A stretch of 44,687 bases of DNA from Acidobacteriota bacterium (GTDB lineage: Bacteria > Acidobacteriota > Terriglobia > UBA7540): positions 1 to 44,687 of the forward strand of contig CADDZJ010000021.1 of the NCBI GenBank assembly GCA_902812415.1, in the 5' to 3' direction. This document shows, piece by piece, positions 2,742-44,687 of this stretch (positions are counted from its first letter, which is position 1; each line of letters starts with the position of its first letter). The notes below the pieces were generated by a model. That model saw only the letters and a program-made list of their open reading frames with translations, did no database searches and was not told the DNA's origin. The position numbers and the translations under genes are program-made.

Positions 2742-2775
2742 AGCGCCGGCAATCGCCGGTGAGGACACCGGCGCT
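2742..2775. repeat. palindromic interspersed repeat unit
   Basis: AGCGCCGG (2742-2749) pairs perfectly with CCGGCGCT (2768-2775) and is followed by ACAGC. It belongs to the same style as the units at 165-360. It lies between two genes of the putative operon, just upstream of the next ATG. Confidence 0.55.
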
Positions 2776-2800
2776 ACAGCAAAGAACACTGTCACAACAT

Positions 2801-4174
2801 ATGGATTACTACGAAGGGCTTGATCCCAGCGCCAAAGAGTTAGTGCGACAATATCGCCAACTCCTCGATCGTCTGCCTCGCACCTTTTCGACCTTCATCA
2901 TCACAGAGCTTCAAAAGTGGCCCAATCTCTTCGAGCCTGAAAAAGCTTATTTTCGTACTCTTCTTGAGCAGTTAGACTCTCTCACTCCTTCCGAGCGATA
3001 CCAGATTTTTGGCAGCCTCGCCGCCTTTGAGGCGCGAAGTGGTTGCAACCAGATTCAAGCCCCTGATCCGGTAGAACTGGACCAATTGCTGATCCGGCAC
3101 ATCAAACGGTCAGGTCTATGGATGCCCTGGCGCGGGGAGATTGACCAGATTTTCGCCAAAATTCAGCCCGGCCTTGATGCCGCGCTTTATGGTTCGGACC
3201 ATTCTCATCGGCTGGTGGTAATTCTCTATGATCAGGAGATCACGATTGAGCGCAATCAACTCTGGCATCGCTTCCAGGACGTTGGGTTGCGCGTGCCTTT
3301 GACGCTGGGGAACGCCTTGACCACCGGGCCCTTTTTAGAGGAACTCTTTACCGGTAGGCCAGCGGGAACCACTCCAGAATCAACCCCAACTTTGTTTACG
3401 GCTTTGGGCGGGGTTGAGCGGGCGCGTCCGCATGATTCCTGGATTATCGATGCGGGCAGCGCTGCAATCGATCTTTGTCGAAAGAGTGTGGGGAGTCTGG
3501 ACGCAAAGGGATGCCCCACGGGTCTTAGTTATACGCGGCTGCGTGATTTCCGGCAGAAAATTTCAGACGTTATCTATCACCAAACATCCACCGGGCAAAT
3601 CACCGGGCCAACTGAACTGGCGGATTATTTGCGGACGCTCGACGTTTCGCCCGTTCAAGGGGATACGCTGAACGGCGATTATCTCGTATCCGCCTTTGTT
3701 CGAGATATCCTGTTGGGAGGCGCCGGAACCCTGATCATCAATAATACGTTTGTCGAATGGTCTGCGATCCAGGCGATGAAACGCGCCCAGCCTCATGTGG
3801 TGGTCGCCCGCTTCGGCGTGCGGTACAAAATGAAGCCTTTCAGTAGTATGCTGCTGTTTTCCAAGCCGCGCCCCACGGACAAGATTCCCTGGATGCTCGA
3901 CCCCTGGGGCTCGTTTATTGACGTCGAAGTGCTCTCCTACTATATCTGGCTGAAAAGCCAGCAACTCACTCCCTATCGGGGAAAAACCCTCTATCTTTTG
4001 CTGGCCGATGGGGTCGAGGAAATGATGGTGGTGAAGCCTGACCAGTCAACAGCCTTCCCGAAAGCCTCCCAGGGGGCTGTCCACCTTCCGGATGTTGCCG
4101 CCACCATGGCGGAATGGATGGGCGTCACTCTGCCCGGCTCGACCGGCCGGGCGATGATGGCCCTGCTTTCCTGA
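2801..4174 (+). CDS. uncharacterised 457-residue protein, weak alkaline-phosphatase-like C-terminus
   Basis: I do not recognise this family. The ATG at 2801 is chosen because the longer frame upstream only reads through a palindromic repeat. There is no signal peptide and no membrane segment. The first 110 residues are rich in charged helices. Residues around 130 hold a hydrophobic strand (RLVVILYDQEI), and the middle contains LIINNTFVEWSAIQAM. The last 50 residues (LPDVAATMAEWMGV, then GRAMMALLS) resemble the closing segment of alkaline-phosphatase/sulfatase-fold proteins, as in the preceding gene. It may therefore be a diverged, cytoplasmic relative or partner. Shared strand and proximity suggest one transcription unit with the two preceding genes. 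Confidence 0.6.
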   Translation: MDYYEGLDPSAKELVRQYRQLLDRLPRTFSTFIITELQKWPNLFEPEKAYFRTLLEQLDSLTPSERYQIFGSLAAFEARSGCNQIQAPDPVELDQLLIRHIKRSGLWMPWRGEIDQIFAKIQPGLDAALYGSDHSHRLVVILYDQEITIERNQLWHRFQDVGLRVPLTLGNALTTGPFLEELFTGRPAGTTPESTPTLFTALGGVERARPHDSWIIDAGSAAIDLCRKSVGSLDAKGCPTGLSYTRLRDFRQKISDVIYHQTSTGQITGPTELADYLRTLDVSPVQGDTLNGDYLVSAFVRDILLGGAGTLIINNTFVEWSAIQAMKRAQPHVVVARFGVRYKMKPFSSMLLFSKPRPTDKIPWMLDPWGSFIDVEVLSYYIWLKSQQLTPYRGKTLYLLLADGVEEMMVVKPDQSTAFPKASQGAVHLPDVAATMAEWMGVTLPGSTGRAMMALLS

Positions 4175-29605: not shown

Positions 29606-31369
29606 ATGAGCAACTTACAATCAAGGATTCTGAACCATCCGCTCCTGCGGAAGTATACCGCCCTCATTCATGAGGATCTTTCCGCAACCTACTCGCGCGA
29701 TCTCCATAAATGGCTGATTGTGGCTCCCATCGTGGGTGTGGTGACGGGGTTAGTGACCACGTTGCTGGCGAAGATTATCCTCTCGTGGATGTGGCCGCCC
29801 ATCCTGGCCTACTATCTCAGCCACCCTCTGGCCATTGTGCCCGGCCTGCTGGTGGGTTTCATCATTACGGGCCTGATCATGCAATATGCCACTCCAGACC
29901 CGGATGAGCATTCCACGGAAGAAATTATCCGCTCCTATCATGAGCATCAGGGCCACATCCAGATGCGCCCTTTCGTACCCAAGCTGCTTGCGGCCATCAC
30001 CACGGTGGGATTTGGAGGCAGCGCTGCCCTGGAAGGCCCCAGTATTTATGGCGGCGGCGCGCTGGGTTCCTGGCTTTGGGCCAAACTGAGGCGCTTCCGG
30101 CTTGAGCCGCGCGACCGGCGCATTATCCTGATCAGCGGGGCGGCGGCCGGCATGGCGGCGGTATTCCGCGCTCCGCTCACCGGGCTGGTCTTTGCCATCG
30201 AAATGCCCTATAAGGATGACCTTGCCCATGAGGCTCTGCTGCCGTCGTTGATCGCCTCCGTGGTTTCTTATGCCACGCTGGCCGCATTTCTGGGGGCGAA
30301 GCCGCTCTTTGATTTTGCTGCAACCGCGGGATTTTCGCGCAGGGATCTTTTATGGTCGGCTTTGCTGGGCGTGATCTGTGGCGGCATCGTGATGGCATTT
30401 GACATCACTTTCCGACGCGCGCGAACCTTTGCGGTGAGAGCTTCCATACCGCATTGGGTGAAACTCGCCATCGGCGGGTTTCTAACGGGCCTATGCGGCT
30501 TGATCTTTATCTTACTCTTCAAGGGCCCCCTGATTCCTCTGGGACCAAACTATGAGGCGGTCAACAATATCCTTCAGAATCCGCACAGTTCCATGGAATT
30601 GGTTGTCTTTGGAATTCTCAAGCTTGCCGCGACACTCTTCTCGCTCGGCGCCGGAGGCGTGAGCGCCATGTTTGTGCCGCTGTTTCTGACGGGCGGCAGC
30701 TTTGGCACCGCCTTTGCTCAGTCCATTGTCCACAGCGCGACTCCTGACCTCTACGCTGCGGTGGGCATGGCGGCCTTTCTGGCGGGGGGGTATAAGACAC
30801 CGCTCACGGCCGTCATCTTTGTGGCGGAGGCCACCGGCGGCCATCCCTATATCGTCCCGACGCTCATTGGCGCTGCTGTCGCCTATGCGATTTCCGGCGA
30901 GGCCTCGGTTTCCGGCGATCAGCGGCTGCACGAGGCTGTTCAGGTGGCTGAATTGGCGCGCATTCCGGTCCACGAGGTGATGCAGAAGCAAGTCATCTCA
31001 GTCCAGGCTTCACGCAACCTGAGGGAATTTGTCGACAGCGTGACGGCCCATCATCGCCACAATGTCTTTCCGGTTTACGAGGGCCATCAAATCCTTGGCG
31101 TTATTTCGCTTTGGTCGTTAAGCAAAGTCCCTCCACAAAAGTGGAGTCAAACGACCGTCAGAGAACTGACGGACCGCAGGGTGATGAAGGTTCCTCCCGA
31201 TTGTGACGTCATGGAAGCGTTGAGTTTGCTGATGAACCAGAGCGGCCAGCATATGCTGCTGGTCACTTCGCCCACAACCGGGAAACTTGAGGGCGTTGTG
31301 ACGAAATCCGATATTCTTTCCGCCCTCAGGGCTCGCGGCGCAAACGGCGGTTCGGGTCACAGCAAATAG
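29606..31369 (+). CDS. ClC-type chloride channel/antiporter with C-terminal CBS domains
   Basis: The 587-residue membrane protein has the ClC core at residues of about 35-440 and two CBS domains (about 453-585; IPVHEVMQKQVISV, then RRVMKVPPDCDVMEAL). The gating glutamate is retained in LEGP (Glu143), and GAAAGMAAVFRAPLTGLVFAIE corresponds to the helix carrying the inner glutamate. The usual GSGIP chloride-binding loop is replaced by EHSTEEII, and GREGP by ALEGP, placing it in a prokaryotic subclass distinct from E. coli ClcA. Ion specificity is therefore uncertain. The start ATG has only a weak ribosome site. Confidence 0.9.
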   Translation: MSNLQSRILNHPLLRKYTALIHEDLSATYSRDLHKWLIVAPIVGVVTGLVTTLLAKIILSWMWPPILAYYLSHPLAIVPGLLVGFIITGLIMQYATPDPDEHSTEEIIRSYHEHQGHIQMRPFVPKLLAAITTVGFGGSAALEGPSIYGGGALGSWLWAKLRRFRLEPRDRRIILISGAAAGMAAVFRAPLTGLVFAIEMPYKDDLAHEALLPSLIASVVSYATLAAFLGAKPLFDFAATAGFSRRDLLWSALLGVICGGIVMAFDITFRRARTFAVRASIPHWVKLAIGGFLTGLCGLIFILLFKGPLIPLGPNYEAVNNILQNPHSSMELVVFGILKLAATLFSLGAGGVSAMFVPLFLTGGSFGTAFAQSIVHSATPDLYAAVGMAAFLAGGYKTPLTAVIFVAEATGGHPYIVPTLIGAAVAYAISGEASVSGDQRLHEAVQVAELARIPVHEVMQKQVISVQASRNLREFVDSVTAHHRHNVFPVYEGHQILGVISLWSLSKVPPQKWSQTTVRELTDRRVMKVPPDCDVMEALSLLMNQSGQHMLLVTSPTTGKLEGVVTKSDILSALRARGANGGSGHSK

Positions 31370-38905: not shown

Positions 38906-40147
38906 ATGCGGTCTTCAGAAAAGTCCTGCCTATCCGGGTCCTTCGTTCTTTTCATTTTTTGCAGTGTGGCCCTAATGATCATGGCGCCGTCGGTTTTGCG
39001 CGCGCAGACTCAGGATGAGCTTGCGCGTCTCTTCCGGCAACATCGCTTCAAGCAGACCATCACCAAGCCGCCCCAGGGAATTCTCAAGCGCCCCTACCTG
39101 GTCCCGAGCGGACCTTACTTTCAGCTCTTTGATTGGGATATGTATTTCATGGGCGTGGCGCTCAGCTACGACGGCGTCGGCAAGCCTCTTGCCAGTTCCA
39201 TTGAAGACTTCCTCGATTTTGTGAATGAAAGGGCGAACGACCGCGGGTATGTGCCGCGGGAAATCGCCCCGGACGGTTTCTGGGCCTTGCCGGAAATGTG
39301 CAAGCCATTTCTGGCCCAAGCTGCGGTGCGCGCATCGCTAACTTTGCATGATTTTCACTGGATTGCTCCATATTACGGGAAGCTCGGAGACACGCTGCAC
39401 TTTTGGGAGAATGCGAGGCAATCGCCGGATGGCCTCTTTCGCTGGTTTAACGGCGTGGAGAGCGGAGTGGACAACAATCCTGCCGTCTCGGACTCTCCCG
39501 CTGTGACAACAGAAGGCGTGGACCTGGCCTGTTATATCGACCGGGAATACCAAGCCATGGCTTTGATCGCGGAGAAGTTGGGGAAAACCGAGGACGCCAG
39601 TGTTTATCGCCAGAAAGCCGATGCCTTGCGGCATCTCATCCAGCACCGGATGTGGTCGTCGTCTGACGCGATGTTTTACAACATCGATTCCCGCACCGGA
39701 AAGTTCATCCGCATCAAAACCTGGACCAACTTTGTTACGCTTTGGGCTGGCGTAGCCACCCCTGAACAGGCCCGGCAAACCATCCAACAGCATTTGTTGA
39801 ACCCCAAAGAATTTTGGGCTCCGTATGGCGTTCGCACACTGTCGCCCGATGAGCCGCTCTATAATCCCAATTCCGGCTATTGGCGCGGGCCCGTTTGGGT
39901 GATCTCCAATTATTTGCTGATGCACGGGTTGATGAACTTCGGCTATCATCGCCGGGCTACCGAGCTTGCCGTCAAAACAGTCCATCTTTTAGTGCTCGAC
40001 CTGCGCAAGACTGGCGGCATGAATGAGTGCTACAACCCGGAGACGGGCGCCCCCACCGCCGGAGGCCATTTCCTGAGTTGGGACCTTCTCGGCGAACACA
40101 TGATCCAGGAAGCCGCCCGCAATCTTGACCCCACGGCCCTCAAGTAG
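38906..40147 (+). CDS. secreted trehalase/GH63-like (alpha/alpha)6 glycoside hydrolase
   Basis: The product has 413 residues with a signal peptide ending VLRAQ. The body resembles GH37/GH63-type hydrolases: YFQLFDWDMYFMGVAL, ESGVDNNPAV (the Asp matches the general acid), LACYIDREYQAMALIAEKLG, SGYWRGPVWVISNYLLMHGL and MNECYNPETG (the Glu matches the general base). Relatives hydrolyse trehalose, glucosylglycerate or mannosylglycerate. Export suggests an external substrate. The ATG has only a distant GAGG. It follows the phosphoesterase gene by 76 bases. Confidence 0.82.
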   Translation: MRSSEKSCLSGSFVLFIFCSVALMIMAPSVLRAQTQDELARLFRQHRFKQTITKPPQGILKRPYLVPSGPYFQLFDWDMYFMGVALSYDGVGKPLASSIEDFLDFVNERANDRGYVPREIAPDGFWALPEMCKPFLAQAAVRASLTLHDFHWIAPYYGKLGDTLHFWENARQSPDGLFRWFNGVESGVDNNPAVSDSPAVTTEGVDLACYIDREYQAMALIAEKLGKTEDASVYRQKADALRHLIQHRMWSSSDAMFYNIDSRTGKFIRIKTWTNFVTLWAGVATPEQARQTIQQHLLNPKEFWAPYGVRTLSPDEPLYNPNSGYWRGPVWVISNYLLMHGLMNFGYHRRATELAVKTVHLLVLDLRKTGGMNECYNPETGAPTAGGHFLSWDLLGEHMIQEAARNLDPTALK

Positions 40148-40243
40148 CTTACGTCAATCAGCGCCTCTCCCGGGAATCTCGGTTCTCTGCGCTCCCCGTT
40201 TCCCGCTGGAAGCCATCTTCCACTATGGCCCCTGAATACGATT

Positions 40244-40299
40244 TCACCACAGAGGGTCAGAGGTCTTTATCTCTGTGTCCTCCGTGCCCTCTGTGGTGA
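40244..40299. repeat. interspersed inverted repeat with 13-bp perfect ends
   Basis: TCACCACAGAGGG (40244-40256) and CCCTCTGTGGTGA (40287-40299) are exact inverted repeats with a 30-base loop containing a further CAGAGG/CTCTG pairing. It lies between the GH63-like gene and kdsD. It resembles the 'ACCACAGAGG' scattered repeat familiar from several phyla. Confidence 0.65.
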
Positions 40300-40389
40300 G
40301 CCCGCTTCTGCCTTTTTCATGGAAGCGTCGCCCCTCGTCACTCGTCGCTGCGATCTGTTATCATCGGGCGTGGGTTGAATACCGACGCT

Positions 40390-41349
40390 ATGAGCCTCCA
40401 AACCGCGCGAAAAGTTCTGGAAATTGAGGCGCGTACTCTCAGCGAACTCACTCACCGGCTGGATCGTCGTTTTGAACAGGCTGTCGAGATCCTGCTGGCC
40501 TGCCAGGGACGCGCGGTTGTGGCCGGTATGGGAAAGTCGGGGATCATCGGCCAGAAAATCTCGGCCACATTTTCGAGCACTGGAACGCCTTCGTTCTTTC
40601 TGCACCCTGCTGAGGCTTTGCACGGCGATCTGGGCCGCCTGGTGAGGAATGACGCGCTTCTGGCCCTTTCCTACAGTGGTGAGACAGAAGAGTTGTTGCG
40701 TTTGCTTGAAACCGTGAAACGGCTCGCAATCCCCCTGATCACCTTGACAGGCCGCCCGGATTCAACACTGGCGCAAGCCAGCGATGTGGTGATTGATGTT
40801 AGTGTGCCGCAGGAAGCCTGCCCGCTGGGGCTCGCTCCGACTGCCTCCACCACCGCCATGTTGGCTGTGGGAGACGCGCTGGCCATGGCGCTGCTTGAAA
40901 AGCGAGGCTTCAGCGAAGAGGATTACGCGAATCTCCATCCTGCTGGCGGCCTGGGCATGAAGCTGCGTCGGGTTGAGAGCCTGATGCACACAGGCGAAAG
41001 CATCCCGCGCGTGCGGCCCCAGACGCCGATGCTGGAGGTAATTTATGAGATGAGCCGCAAGGGCTTGGGTCACACGGCCGTGGTGAATGTTGATGGTCGG
41101 CTCGTGGGTCTTATTTCCGATGGCGATCTCCGGCGACTTTTCGAGCGGGAAGGAAATCGCGCCTTGAATATGCTGGCTGCTGATTGCATGACCGCCTCGC
41201 CTGTCACCATCAGTCGCAAGGAACTGGCAACCGGGGCGCTTAATGTGATGGAGTCCCGAAAAATCACGGCGTTGCCGGTGGTGGATGCTGAAGGAAAACT
41301 TGAAGGCGTCCTTCACATTCATGACCTCTGGACGACACAAATGTTTTAA
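40390..41349 (+). CDS. kdsD: D-arabinose-5-phosphate isomerase (KpsF/GutQ/KdsD family)
   Basis: KdsD converts ribulose-5-phosphate to arabinose-5-phosphate, the first step of Kdo synthesis for LPS. The 319-residue protein has an SIS domain (VVAGMGKSGIIGQKISATFSS-like start, SYSGETEELL, LAPTASTTAMLAVGDALA) and two CBS domains (SLMHTGESIPRV and ADCMTASPVTISRK). The length is normal. ATG 40390 is chosen over TTG 40375. kdsC follows 191 bases downstream on the same strand. Confidence 0.94.
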   Translation: MSLQTARKVLEIEARTLSELTHRLDRRFEQAVEILLACQGRAVVAGMGKSGIIGQKISATFSSTGTPSFFLHPAEALHGDLGRLVRNDALLALSYSGETEELLRLLETVKRLAIPLITLTGRPDSTLAQASDVVIDVSVPQEACPLGLAPTASTTAMLAVGDALAMALLEKRGFSEEDYANLHPAGGLGMKLRRVESLMHTGESIPRVRPQTPMLEVIYEMSRKGLGHTAVVNVDGRLVGLISDGDLRRLFEREGNRALNMLAADCMTASPVTISRKELATGALNVMESRKITALPVVDAEGKLEGVLHIHDLWTTQMF

Positions 41350-41540
41350 GCGCGGTAACGAGTGACGAGCGATTGGCCAGCGGTTGACGCTCAACATTCA
41401 GTGATCACACTTCATGCCTGACACCTGAAACCTAGAGTCTAGCCAAAGATATTTGAAATTCCGAATTCCGGATGTAATGTCATGCAACGTCGGCTCAGAT
41501 TGTAAAACACGTTCTGCACAGACCGAAGACGTAAGAATCT

Positions 41541-42086
41541 ATGCCCATACCCACCGAACTTCGCAAGCGCGCGCAGCGCGTCAAACTTCTGCTGATGGAT
41601 ATCGATGGAGTCCTGACGGATGGCCGCATCTATTTTGTCCCAGACCATCAGGGGCGTCTGATCGAAACAAAGGCTTTTCACCCGCGGGACGGTTTGGGCA
41701 TCCGATACGCCCGCGAGGCTGGCCTCAAAACCGGCGTCATTTCCGGACGCGGCGGGCCGGTGGTGAAACACCGCATGAAAGAGTTGGGGATTGACTATGT
41801 GTATCAGAATAGTCTGGAAAAGCTGGAGCCTTATCGTGATCTGCTGCGCGAAGCCAAACTGAAAGATGAGGACATTTGTTATATCGGCGACGATTTGGTG
41901 GATCTGCCCATCCTCAAACGCGCAGGCTTGGCTGTCGGGGTGGGGAACGGCCATCCGTACCTTCGCCGTCACGTTCATTACTGGACGAAGAACCCGGGCG
42001 GCATGGGCGCCGTGCGTGAAACCGTGGAGCTGATTCTCTCCGCCCAGGGAAAACTCGAGCCGATCTTAAAGTATTACTTGAGATAA
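41541..42086 (+). CDS. kdsC: 3-deoxy-D-manno-octulosonate 8-phosphate phosphatase
   Basis: This HAD-family enzyme dephosphorylates Kdo-8-phosphate. The 181-residue protein has LLMDIDGVLTDG (catalytic DxD), FHPRDGLGIRYAREAG, VISGRGG, YIGDDLVDLPIL and AVGVGNGHP, diagnostic for KdsC. Together with kdsD it shows that the organism makes Kdo and hence LPS. The later Lpt export genes that often follow kdsC are absent; a GH27 gene follows instead. Confidence 0.94.
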   Translation: MPIPTELRKRAQRVKLLLMDIDGVLTDGRIYFVPDHQGRLIETKAFHPRDGLGIRYAREAGLKTGVISGRGGPVVKHRMKELGIDYVYQNSLEKLEPYRDLLREAKLKDEDICYIGDDLVDLPILKRAGLAVGVGNGHPYLRRHVHYWTKNPGGMGAVRETVELILSAQGKLEPILKYYLR

Positions 42087-42529
42087 TTCTGAAGCTGTTT
42101 TGCCTCCACACTCCCGTCGAATCATAGTCGGATTCCCCTTCAATCTTTATCTTCAGCTGGTTGCCAAAGGCGCTTCTGAAACGTGTCTTCCCAAGCTCCT
42201 CGCCTGTCGTTTTGATTTGTGGTTTCTCCATACTGTCATTCTGAGCAGAGCGCCGTGAAGCGAAGAATCCCCGCATTTCTGGCTCAGTACTGAAAACAGT
42301 CAGTCCCACGCAAGCGGGAATCCACGGAGTCACAGCCAATAAATTTACGGATGGTACAGCGTCCGAAATCGCAACTCCCGTCTCTCTGATTCATGCGTTT
42401 TTTTGATCCTTAAATGCTGGACTTCCTCTTTATCACAGTAGTAAACTGCCGTCTCCCTTATGCGGAACATGAAGCGCGCCGACAAGGGGAGAAATGGCGG
42501 CAAAACTTTTGTCACTCAGGAGTGAAGCG
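42087..42529. other. intergenic region with a partial TGTCATTC repeat, no firm gene
   Basis: A truncated copy of the repeat at 36983-37119 occupies about 42234-42300 (TGTCATTCTGA, GCGAAGAATCC, GGCTCAG). On the minus strand a frame beginning at ATG 42231 reads a protein-like stretch of about 50 residues before entering kdsC antisense; it has no ribosome site and is probably a gene remnant. The end of the region carries the leader of the GH27 gene. Confidence 0.45.
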
Positions 42530-43711
42530 ATGAGGTATCTGAAGCTCAAAGGGATTATATGCGCTTGTCTCGTGATTGCCCTCGCCGGCATCTTTACAAG
42601 CATCGCCCGAGGGCAAGGAAGTCAAGTGGCTATGACGCCACCCATGGGCTGGAACAGTTGGAATCATTTCGGCTGTCATATCACCGAAGACATCGTGCGG
42701 CAACAGGCGCACGCCATGGCAACCAACGGCATGAAGGATGCAGGCTACGTTTACGTCAACATCGATGATTGCTGGCAGGGCCAGCGCGACGCGCAGGGCA
42801 ACATCCAGCCAAACGCAAATTTTCCGGACATGAAAGGGCTTGCCGACTACGTCCACAGCCTGGGGTTGAAATTCGGAGTTTATTCATCGCCCGGACCTCT
42901 CACTTGCGCCCGCCACACGGGCAGCTATCAGCATGAGCAGCAGGACGCAAAGACCTACGCTGCCTGGGGTGTGGATTATCTGAAATACGATTGGTGCAGC
43001 GCCAGCCGCGTCTATCAGCCCAGCCAGATGCAAGCCGTTTACCGCAAAATGTACGACGCCCTGCGGAGCACCGAGCGGCCGATTGTGTTCAGCCTTTGCC
43101 AGTACGGATTGCAACAGGTATGGAGATGGGGGCCTTCGGTGGGCGGGAATCTTTGGCGGACGACGGGCGATATTTCACCCGACTATACGCGCATGGCCTT
43201 TATTGGCTTTGAACAGAACGGTCTTCAGAAATACGCCGGGCCGGGGCACTGGAACGATCCGGACATGCTCGAAATCGGCAATGGCCGCCTGACCAACGTC
43301 AATGAAGAGCGTACGCAGATGAGCCTGTGGTGCATGCTGGCTGCGCCTTTGCTTGCGGGCAACGATCTGACACACATGAATCAACAGACGCTCGACGTTC
43401 TGACCAACCGCGAAGTAATTGCGGTGGATCAGGACCCCAAGGGCGTCCAGGGTCATCGCATCACCCAGGAAGGGCCGCTGGAGGTCTGGGCCAAGGCCAT
43501 GTCGGACGGCAGCCAGGTGGTGGGCCTCTTTAACCGCAGCGTTGGCGCCGCCGTCATGGAAGTCAACTTCAGCGATATCGGAATTTATGGCTCGGCGAAG
43601 GTGCGAGACCTTTGGGCGCACAAAGATCTCGGGTCATTCGACCGCAGTTTCTCAACGGAAGTTCCGGCGCACGGTGTGGCGCTGATTCGCGTCAGCTTGC
43701 CGAAACCGTAA
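42530..43711 (+). CDS. secreted GH27 alpha-galactosidase-like enzyme
   Basis: The 393-residue product begins with a signal peptide (CLVIALAGIF, ending ARGQ). The GH27 barrel is complete: PPMGWNSWNHFGC, YVNIDDCW, KFGVYSSPG, YLKYDWC with nucleophile Asp154, RTTGDI with acid/base Asp214, GHWNDPDMLEIGNG, and a C-terminal beta domain. GH27 enzymes remove terminal alpha-galactose (or N-acetylgalactosamine); the disulfide cysteines fit export. AGGAG lies 7 bases before ATG 42530. The gene is the last chromosomal gene before the tRNA fragment. Confidence 0.92.
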   Translation: MRYLKLKGIICACLVIALAGIFTSIARGQGSQVAMTPPMGWNSWNHFGCHITEDIVRQQAHAMATNGMKDAGYVYVNIDDCWQGQRDAQGNIQPNANFPDMKGLADYVHSLGLKFGVYSSPGPLTCARHTGSYQHEQQDAKTYAAWGVDYLKYDWCSASRVYQPSQMQAVYRKMYDALRSTERPIVFSLCQYGLQQVWRWGPSVGGNLWRTTGDISPDYTRMAFIGFEQNGLQKYAGPGHWNDPDMLEIGNGRLTNVNEERTQMSLWCMLAAPLLAGNDLTHMNQQTLDVLTNREVIAVDQDPKGVQGHRITQEGPLEVWAKAMSDGSQVVGLFNRSVGAAVMEVNFSDIGIYGSAKVRDLWAHKDLGSFDRSFSTEVPAHGVALIRVSLPKP

Positions 43712-43746
43712 TGAGCGCGAACTGGCGGATGGTTGAGCGCAGCACA

Positions 43747-43791
43747 TGGAGCGGGGGACGGGGATCGAACCCGCGACGTCCAGCTTGGGAA
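43747..43791 (-). other. 3' half of tRNA-Gly(CCC): attachment-site-like fragment
   Basis: On the minus strand these 45 bases read as anticodon loop TTCCCAA, stem strand GCTGG, variable ACGTC, T-arm GCGGG-TTCGATC-CCCGT, acceptor strand CCCCCGC, discriminator T and encoded CCA. Glycine identity follows from the CCC anticodon, the U discriminator and the expected GCGGGGG partner. The bases that should supply the 5' anticodon stem (CCAGC) are TCAAT instead, and no D-arm or 5' acceptor strand follows, so the tRNA is cut at the anticodon loop. This is the classic shape of an att duplicate left by a tRNA-targeting integrase. Confidence 0.8.
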
Positions 43792-43929
43792 ATTGACCGT
43801 GGATTGAAAATACAAAATTTAGCGTCTACGGTGTTGATTGCTGACGATCCCAAGCTATTGATTCTACGCGAACCAATTTCAGCCGTCCGTTAATGGACTC
43901 ATATTGGACTCTGTTCTGAAGCCGGCTCG

Positions 43930-44154
43930 TTACAGCCGGTCGGGTTCGGTCGGCTCGGCAGGGGGAATCTTCGCCATCACGCGTCGAAACTTCTCATAGC
44001 TGCCTCGCGCGGCCCTTTCTTTTAGCCGCTCGAATTCAAGAATGCGCTCTTCAAATGCCGAAGCAAACAACTCCTCCACGGAAACATTCTCTGCGGCGGC
44101 AATCTGCTTTGCGCTCTTGTACAACTCTTCTGGGATGTTGATGGTTAGGTTCAT
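43930..44154 (-). CDS. ribbon-helix-helix antitoxin-like protein
   Basis: The 74-residue protein begins MNLTINIPEELYKSAKQIA, the beta strand and first helix of an RHH DNA-binding domain, followed by SVEELFASAFEERI. The C-terminal half is charged and probably disordered until bound to a toxin. Its ATG overlaps the stop of the PIN gene by four bases (ATGA), so it is translated second. It probably neutralises the PIN toxin and represses the operon (inference). Confidence 0.8.
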   Translation of the reverse strand: MNLTINIPEELYKSAKQIAAAENVSVEELFASAFEERILEFERLKERAARGSYEKFRRVMAKIPPAEPTEPDRL

Positions 44155-44567
44155 TGGTGGCCTCCCACGAGCGCCAGCATCTCCTTGGGGCTGATCACTC
44201 GAATACCGAACTGCGCAGCCTCCGCAAAATGCCTGGTATTGAACGTGACAATCGTAGCCTGCGTTCGCACCGCTAATTCCAGAATACGATCATCATCCGG
44301 GTCAGACAATACTGGCCGCCATCGGAAGTAAATCTGGACCAGATTGGACCGGCCACAAAGATATTCAAGGAAATCGTCGATATCTTGCAACGTCAAGTCC
44401 ATTTCTGGAAGCGATCGTTTCAGAACCGCCTCGTATTCGAACGCGAGAGCAGGTGAAATAACAGGCCGCCACCGCTCCTGCTCAAGCGTTTGGAGCAACC
44501 GGTACGAAGACCCCAGGCTTGACCGCAAGGCGGCGACCAAGATATTGGTATCGAGTACTGTCTTGCC
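44151..44567 (-). pseudogene. PIN-domain toxin gene, 5' end cut by an insertion sequence
   Basis: The frame encodes a PIN-family ribonuclease of the COG1569 kind: KTVLDTNILVAALRSS, then SPALAFEYEAVLKRS, LSDPDDDRILELAV and VTFNTRHF. PIN enzymes use a cluster of acidic residues to cut RNA. The sequence upstream of KTVLDT has no start codon: it meets an in-frame TGA at 44568-44570 where the IS-like DNA begins. The nearest usable start, TTG at 44538-44540, would drop the first catalytic Asp. So the toxin is probably inactive or lost. Toxin-before-antitoxin order is the reverse of classic vapBC. Confidence 0.7.
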
Positions 44568-44687
44568 TCAGTCGGAAATGGAGTGTCCTGCCGTTAAGAT
44601 AGCTACAACGGAGAGGACACATGAGCGAACCGGAACGTAAGGCCAAGCAGCGTACCCCGGAAGAGAAAGTCGCCATCCTGCGCCGGC
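44568..44687 (+). mobile_element. left end of an IS3-like insertion sequence (continues beyond the window)
   Basis: The PIN frame breaks at about 44567. Within 55 bases a transposase-type gene begins, with GGAGAGG before its ATG. The exact IS end cannot be placed without the right end; no target duplication can be checked. Confidence 0.55.
44621..44687 (+). CDS. IS3-family OrfA-like transposase N-terminus (partial)
   Basis: Only 22 codons are present. The segment RTPEEKVAILRR matches the start of IS3-family helix-turn-helix OrfA proteins (W/T-x-E-E-K-V-A-I-L-R-x-H-L). A good GGAGAGG lies 4 bases upstream of the ATG. The rest lies beyond the window. Confidence 0.65.
   Translation, partial: MSEPERKAKQRTPEEKVAILRR

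What the first reader, a model, noticed from the sequence alone, without database searches (positions are those of the whole stretch)
43747..43791. tRNA-Gly(CCC) 3' half marks the edge of a genomic island
A perfect 3' half of a glycine tRNA, with CCA, ends exactly at the anticodon loop, and its 5' half is absent. In tRNA-targeted integration the 3' duplicate has chromosome on its 3' side and element on its 5' side. Here the 5' side faces right, where an RHH/PIN pair and an IS-like end lie, while the left side holds ordinary chromosomal genes. The polarity fits an island starting at 43792 and running out of the window.
Basis: partly seen in the sequence, partly recalled or inferred. Interest (0 to 1): 0.7.

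Follow-up and report, generated by a model that had tools for sequence, protein, structure and literature searches.

The report
Far end of a tRNA-inserted island
The 45-base tRNA fragment is the scar at the far edge of a mobile DNA island that inserts into one glycine tRNA gene in acidobacteria; this is a well-known type of insertion, seen here at a site that is used, and stacked with islands, across the phylum.

Summary
In detail: window 43747-43791 (minus) is a perfect 3' half of tRNA-Gly(CCC), CCA included, starting at the anticodon loop and lacking its 5' half. The interpretation also holds: it is the distal attachment site of a tRNA-targeted integrated element, with chromosome left and element right. 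Decisive evidence: (1) same-genus genome G001 carries the whole layout on one contig: intact tRNA-Gly(CCC), tyrosine integrase, ~10 kb of cargo, the same 45-base half. (2) The window and a genome of another genus (G025) are 91% identical from the RHH antitoxin gene up to the CCA, and unrelated beyond it. (3) The element side carries a conserved arm with a direct repeat 119 bases from the core; related repeats lie beside the integrase ends. (4) Of 72 related integrase loci, nearly all acidobacterial, 61 lie beside tRNA-Gly(CCC): 39 intact, 22 as the 3' half alone (stack junctions). The window's genome holds one such junction with an integrase on contig C233. This genome's intact tRNA-Gly(CCC) is not in the assembly, and the contig ends in an insertion sequence 0.9 kb past the scar. 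Known kind; modest interest.

The parts
43746..43791 (-). Distal attachment core: tRNA-Gly(CCC) 3' half with CCA (43747-43791) plus one shared base (43746)
   Evidence: 46-bp identity with C233 and with G001; 45/45 to intact tRNA-Gly(CCC) of relatives
43792..43839 (-). Conserved distal (P') arm of the element next to the core, type 1: ...TTTTGTATTTTCAATC..GGTCAAT|core
   Evidence: shared with G001, G002:C68, G006, G007, G020:C28, G021:C419, G022, G025, G033 and two scars of G036
43891..43910 (-). Putative integrase arm-type direct repeat AGTCCAATATGAGTCCATTA, 119 bases from the core
   Evidence: the only occurrence of the motif in the window; same distance (-119/-120) in G001, G022, G025 and two scars of G036; related repeat at +36 to +39 on the integrase side
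43930..44154 (-). RHH (FitA-like) antitoxin gene, element cargo
   Evidence: PF22513, E 1e-4, below Pfam's cut-off; shared with G025:C300 next to its scar
44151..44557 (-). PIN-domain toxin gene whose start appears to be cut off by the insertion sequence (residual ORF 44151-44540)
   Evidence: PF13470, E 2e-13; junction at ~44558 from comparison with C65
44558..44687 (+). End of an insertion sequence; contig breaks inside it
   Evidence: 95% identical copy at C65:22882-23008, also at a contig end
42494..43711 (+). Alpha-galactosidase (melibiase) gene, the host-chromosome neighbour; its stop lies 34 bases from the core
   Evidence: PF16499, E 4e-67; orthologs in G003 and G002 lie elsewhere, away from tRNA-Gly

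Best explanation
The fragment is the distal attachment site (attR-like) left by site-specific integration into tRNA-Gly(CCC). A tyrosine integrase recombines the tRNA gene's 3' half (anticodon loop to CCA) with an identical copy carried by a circular element. The element's copy restores the tRNA at the integrase end, and the displaced chromosomal 3' half ends up at the far end. So 43747 leftward is host chromosome, and 43792 rightward is the element's far end: attachment arm with an integrase-binding repeat, then an RHH/PIN pair, then an insertion sequence. The same scar can serve as a target again, so elements stack head to tail; contig C233 of this genome is one such internal junction. Shown by sequence: scar, arm, boundary, the integrase family's link to this tRNA, stacking in relatives. 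Inferred: the recombination itself, the circular intermediate, the binding role of the repeat, and that C233 and the window belong to one array.
For: G001:C125 has, on one contig, intact tRNA-Gly(CCC), integrase, cargo including a type ISP restriction-modification enzyme, and a second 3' half 10,012 bp on. Window and G025 are 90.6% identical over 524 aligned columns (window 43747-44263), ending exactly at the CCA. Conserved distal arm in 12 scars. Arm-type repeat at -119/-120 in six scars and at +36 to +39 on seven integrase sides; only 8 hits of the pattern in 604 kb of sequence. 61 of 72 integrase-family loci are next to tRNA-Gly(CCC), 39 intact and 22 as the 3' half only. G036 has an intact tRNA and two further 3' halves at 48 and 52 kb on one contig. 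C233 has an integrase, a 3' half, and a second arm type also seen twice in G020.
Against: No integrase and no intact tRNA-Gly(CCC) can be linked physically to the window; the intact gene is missing from the assembly. No relative was found with the window's left flank next to an intact tRNA-Gly(CCC), so the empty site is not shown. C233's integrase-side repeat (GCTCC...GCTCC) differs from the window's (AGTCC...AGTCC), so C233's integrase may belong to another element of the stack.
Confidence: 0.93

Rival explanations
1. The fragment is a decayed remnant of an ordinary tRNA gene (pseudogene) unrelated to any mobile element.
For: Broken tRNA-Gly(CCC) pieces occur in the family, e.g. orphan 5' parts in G031 and G037.
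Against: The half is perfect, starts exactly at the anticodon loop, and is preceded by an arm conserved in 11 other scars with a repeat at a fixed distance; homology to another genus stops at its last base.
Confidence: 0.03
2. The scar is an internal junction of a stack, so the DNA left of it is another element and not host chromosome.
For: 22 of 72 integrase loci sit at junctions where a 3' half is followed by another element's integrase; C233 is one.
Against: The window's 3' side has no integrase-side arm, no repeat and no integrase; the alpha-galactosidase gene ends 34 bases away, and beyond it lie frames that look (by eye) like kdsC and kdsD housekeeping genes.
Confidence: 0.08
3. The element is real but no longer mobile: the insertion sequence and later losses removed its integrase, and the right side is a short remnant. 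(A refinement of the best explanation, not an exclusive alternative.)
For: The PIN gene is cut by an insertion sequence at ~44558; the G025 counterpart is also a remnant with a mutated half; a fragment of an integrase gene of this family lies on C14.
Against: Nothing right of 44687 can be read; C233 carries an open, full-length integrase of the family.
Confidence: 0.4

Closest known systems
tRNA-targeted genomic islands / integrative elements with tyrosine integrases
   Same: Core is the tRNA 3' half, restored at the integrase end and duplicated at the far end; integrase gene next to the tRNA; arm-type repeats on both sides
   Different: Nothing in mechanism. This integrase family is tied to one tRNA, Gly(CCC), in acidobacteria; no paper describing it was found in the library searched
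Dehalococcoides ssrA-specific genomic islands (PMC3146451)
   Same: Many islands stacked behind one RNA gene, each ending in a direct repeat of its 3' end, with a conserved motif just upstream of each repeat
   Different: Those use a serine recombinase (DsiB) and the tmRNA gene with a 20-bp repeat; here a tyrosine integrase, tRNA-Gly(CCC) and a 45-46-bp repeat
Integrative and mobilizable elements (review PMC5704250)
   Same: Integrase-bearing elements at RNA genes carrying varied cargo (here restriction-modification, toxin-antitoxin)
   Different: Transfer genes were not systematically sought here; only a TrwB/coupling-protein-like ATPase was seen in G036. The review was listed by a search, not read

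Membership tests
tRNA-targeted integrated element (tyrosine integrase) | 3' end of a tRNA gene duplicated at the distal boundary | tested here: met
   45/45 identity to the 3' half of intact tRNA-Gly(CCC) of relatives; no 5' half
tRNA-targeted integrated element (tyrosine integrase) | Element DNA on the 5' side of the duplicate, chromosome on the 3' side | tested here: met
   Homology to other elements on the right ends at the CCA; left flanks differ in each genome
tRNA-targeted integrated element (tyrosine integrase) | Tyrosine integrase gene beside the tRNA end of the element | tested here: inconclusive
   Met in relatives (G001, G002, G032, G036 and others) and on C233 of this genome, but no contig joins an integrase to the window's element
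tRNA-targeted integrated element (tyrosine integrase) | Intact tRNA gene at the other end | tested here: inconclusive
tRNA-targeted integrated element (tyrosine integrase) | Empty site in a relative (supporting, not defining) | tested here: inconclusive
   Orthologs of the left-flank gene in G002 and G003 do not lie beside tRNA-Gly(CCC); gene order is not conserved enough for the test
tRNA-targeted integrated element (tyrosine integrase) | Excision to a circle | not testable with these tools
   No reads available
Tandem (accreted) genomic islands | Several 3'-end duplicates in series behind one tRNA | tested here: inconclusive
   Met in G036 (three sites in 52 kb on one contig); in the window's genome two scars lie on separate contigs and their order is inferred

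The most novel reading that the evidence does not exclude
A phylum-wide accretion site in Acidobacteriota: one tyrosine-integrase family dedicated to tRNA-Gly(CCC) builds stacks of elements, whose two conserved far-end arm types and matched arm repeats set which ends recombine. The tRNA itself is expendable there and is sometimes broken, or replaced by a different tRNA-Gly(CCC), possibly brought by an element (as G031 and G037 suggest).
Probability: 0.25. Interest if true: 0.45.

Novelty: new member of a known kind. Interest (0 to 1): 0.27.

Why it matters
It fixes an element boundary to the base, and gives a simple marker (tRNA-Gly(CCC) 3' half plus arm motif) for finding islands and their cargo in fragmentary acidobacterial assemblies. 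These bacteria are abundant in soil, and the literature searches here found no account of mobile elements at this site. The mechanism itself is textbook.

Tried and rejected
Rfam on 40000-44687 found only a chance weak match (mir-1976), so the half tRNA is below detection by that route. C233's odd 5' side looked at first like a secondary integration site or a circle; it turned out to be a second conserved far-end arm shared with two scars of G020, so a stack junction is the simplest reading. Left-flank synteny as an empty-site test failed: the alpha-galactosidase gene lies in different places in relatives. G020 contigs C145 and C28 share 191 bp of 3' flank (97.9%) behind different arm types; this looked like alternative occupancy of one site, but the match is too short to claim. 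The integrase copy on C14 is only a fragment (residues 86-245). An upstream gene of G001's tRNA lies on C9 in this genome, and no tRNA-Gly remnant was seen beside it.

Full report
OBSERVATION. The minus strand of 43747-43791 reads TTCCCAAGCTGGACGTCGCGGGTTCGATCCCCGTCCCCCGCTCCA: the anticodon loop (CCC), the 3' side of the anticodon stem, variable loop, T arm, acceptor and CCA of a glycine tRNA. ARAGORN finds no tRNA in the window. The half is identical over 45/45 bases to the intact tRNA-Gly(CCC) genes of same-genus genomes G001 and G002, and of G032 and G036. The next best place in the window matches only 25/45. The window is the whole contig C21 of a 4.84-Mb assembly in 261 contigs. Matching contig lengths identify its relatives as acidobacterial metagenome assemblies: G001's 43114-base contig is NFUN01000059.1, Acidobacteria subdivision 13, and G002's 40135-base contig is JAKAWG010000050.1.

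THE SAME LAYOUT, COMPLETE, IN RELATIVES. In G001, one contig holds intact tRNA-Gly(CCC) at 31012-31086, a tyrosine integrase immediately 3' of it, cargo (replication-O-like protein, repressor, type ISP/IIG restriction-modification enzyme, HNH nuclease) and a second, half tRNA 10,012 bp further on. In G002 an intact tRNA with integrase, primase-polymerase and type ISP enzyme lies on C32, and a far end with the same HNH and small genes lies on C68. Among 39 genomes of the family, integrases of this kind (E below 1e-60) lie beside tRNA-Gly(CCC) or its half in 11 of 12 matches; the twelfth is a gene fragment. In a scan of one genome per species, 61 of 72 related integrase loci have tRNA-Gly(CCC) within 400 bases downstream: 39 intact, 22 with the 3' half only. 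One more has tRNA-Gly(TCC). Of the ten without, five stop within 305 bases of the integrase match. The and sets overlap.

THE BOUNDARY TO THE BASE. G025, of another genus, has a slightly mutated half tRNA preceded by the same RHH antitoxin gene and arm. The two sequences are 90.6% identical over 524 aligned columns (window 43747-44263), and the match ends at the CCA; beyond it the flanks are unrelated. This is what a shared element joined to two different chromosomes should look like.

ARMS AND REPEATS. On the element side, the ~48 bases next to the core (window 43792-43839) are conserved in 12 scars of 11 genomes. Further out, at 119 bases from the core, lies a tandem direct repeat (window 43891-43910, AGTCCAATATGAGTCCATTA). 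The same kind of repeat lies at -119 or -120 in G001, G022, G025 and both scars of G036, and at +36 to +39 on the integrase side in seven sites. The search pattern occurs 8 times in 604 kb of sequence counted over both strands, and in the window only at this place. I read it as the integrase's arm-type binding site (inference). In G001 and G022 the two ends carry the same version (ACTCC). The window's far end carries AGTCC, as does the integrase side of G008, whereas C233's integrase side carries GCTCC.

STACKING. G036 has an intact tRNA-Gly(CCC) and two further halves at 48 and 52 kb on one contig, the first followed by an integrase-side arm and an integrase remnant. The window's own genome has a second exact copy of the core on contig C233. 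Its 3' side holds an integrase-side arm and a full-length integrase, 83% identical to that of G032. Its 5' side is no tRNA half but a second arm type (TTGCCAACC.TGCCGCA...) seen also at two scars of G020. C233 is therefore best read as the junction of two stacked elements. That C233 and the window belong to one array is likely but not shown.

WHAT COULD NOT BE SHOWN. The contig stops in an insertion sequence at ~44558-44687, which also cuts the start of the PIN gene; the only close copy (C65) is likewise at a contig end. No intact tRNA-Gly(CCC) and no 5' half is in the assembly. Either the gene lies in missing sequence (completeness 95.9%) or this genome has lost it; tRNA-Gly(TCC) could read the same codon (established knowledge). 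No empty site was found: the left-flank alpha-galactosidase gene lies in other surroundings in G002 and G003.

COMPARISON AND VERDICT. The mechanism is that of classical tRNA-targeted integration (established knowledge), and the stacking resembles that at Dehalococcoides ssrA (PMC3146451), with a different recombinase class and target. Searches of the open library found no paper on tRNA-Gly islands in acidobacteria; absence there is weak evidence. New member of a known kind; the integrase family's near-exclusive link to one tRNA across acidobacteria is the most useful by-product.

Noticed in passing
L213 2660-2689 (G031:C3, 36659-36690): Orphan 5' half of tRNA-Gly(CCC) followed directly by a different tyrosine-integrase-like gene (ORF 2754-3899, identified by eye) and no 3' half: the tRNA appears truly broken there, suggesting it is expendable.
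   Followed up: partly
L214 about 3282-3534 (G037:C53): A decayed native tRNA-Gly(CCC) (first 48 bases) lies about 130 bp upstream of a complete tRNA-Gly(CCC) of a different sequence lineage, as if the gene had been replaced by an imported one.
   Followed up: partly
L039 1819-3529 (G000:C233): Element end holding an RHH/PIN-like pair unlike the window's, then frames resembling pieces of a response regulator and of a radical-SAM/SPASM protein (by eye), i.e. a patchwork.
   Followed up: no
L062, G000:C14:21316-21795: Fragment (residues 86-245, 81% identical) of the same integrase family, away from any tRNA-Gly: an old remnant.
   Followed up: partly
L107-L109 (G036:C18:128212-180136): 48-kb island behind tRNA-Gly(CCC) with a coupling-protein-like ATPase, a serine recombinase, a kinase/TPR protein and a helicase-SMC-methylase-helicase cluster that looks like a defence system next to the scar.
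   Followed up: partly
L120 4073-5206 (G025:C300): Gene just inside the RHH gene of the G025 remnant has a weak TIR-effector match (PADLOC, E 8e-9), so defence cargo may sit at this end.
   Followed up: no
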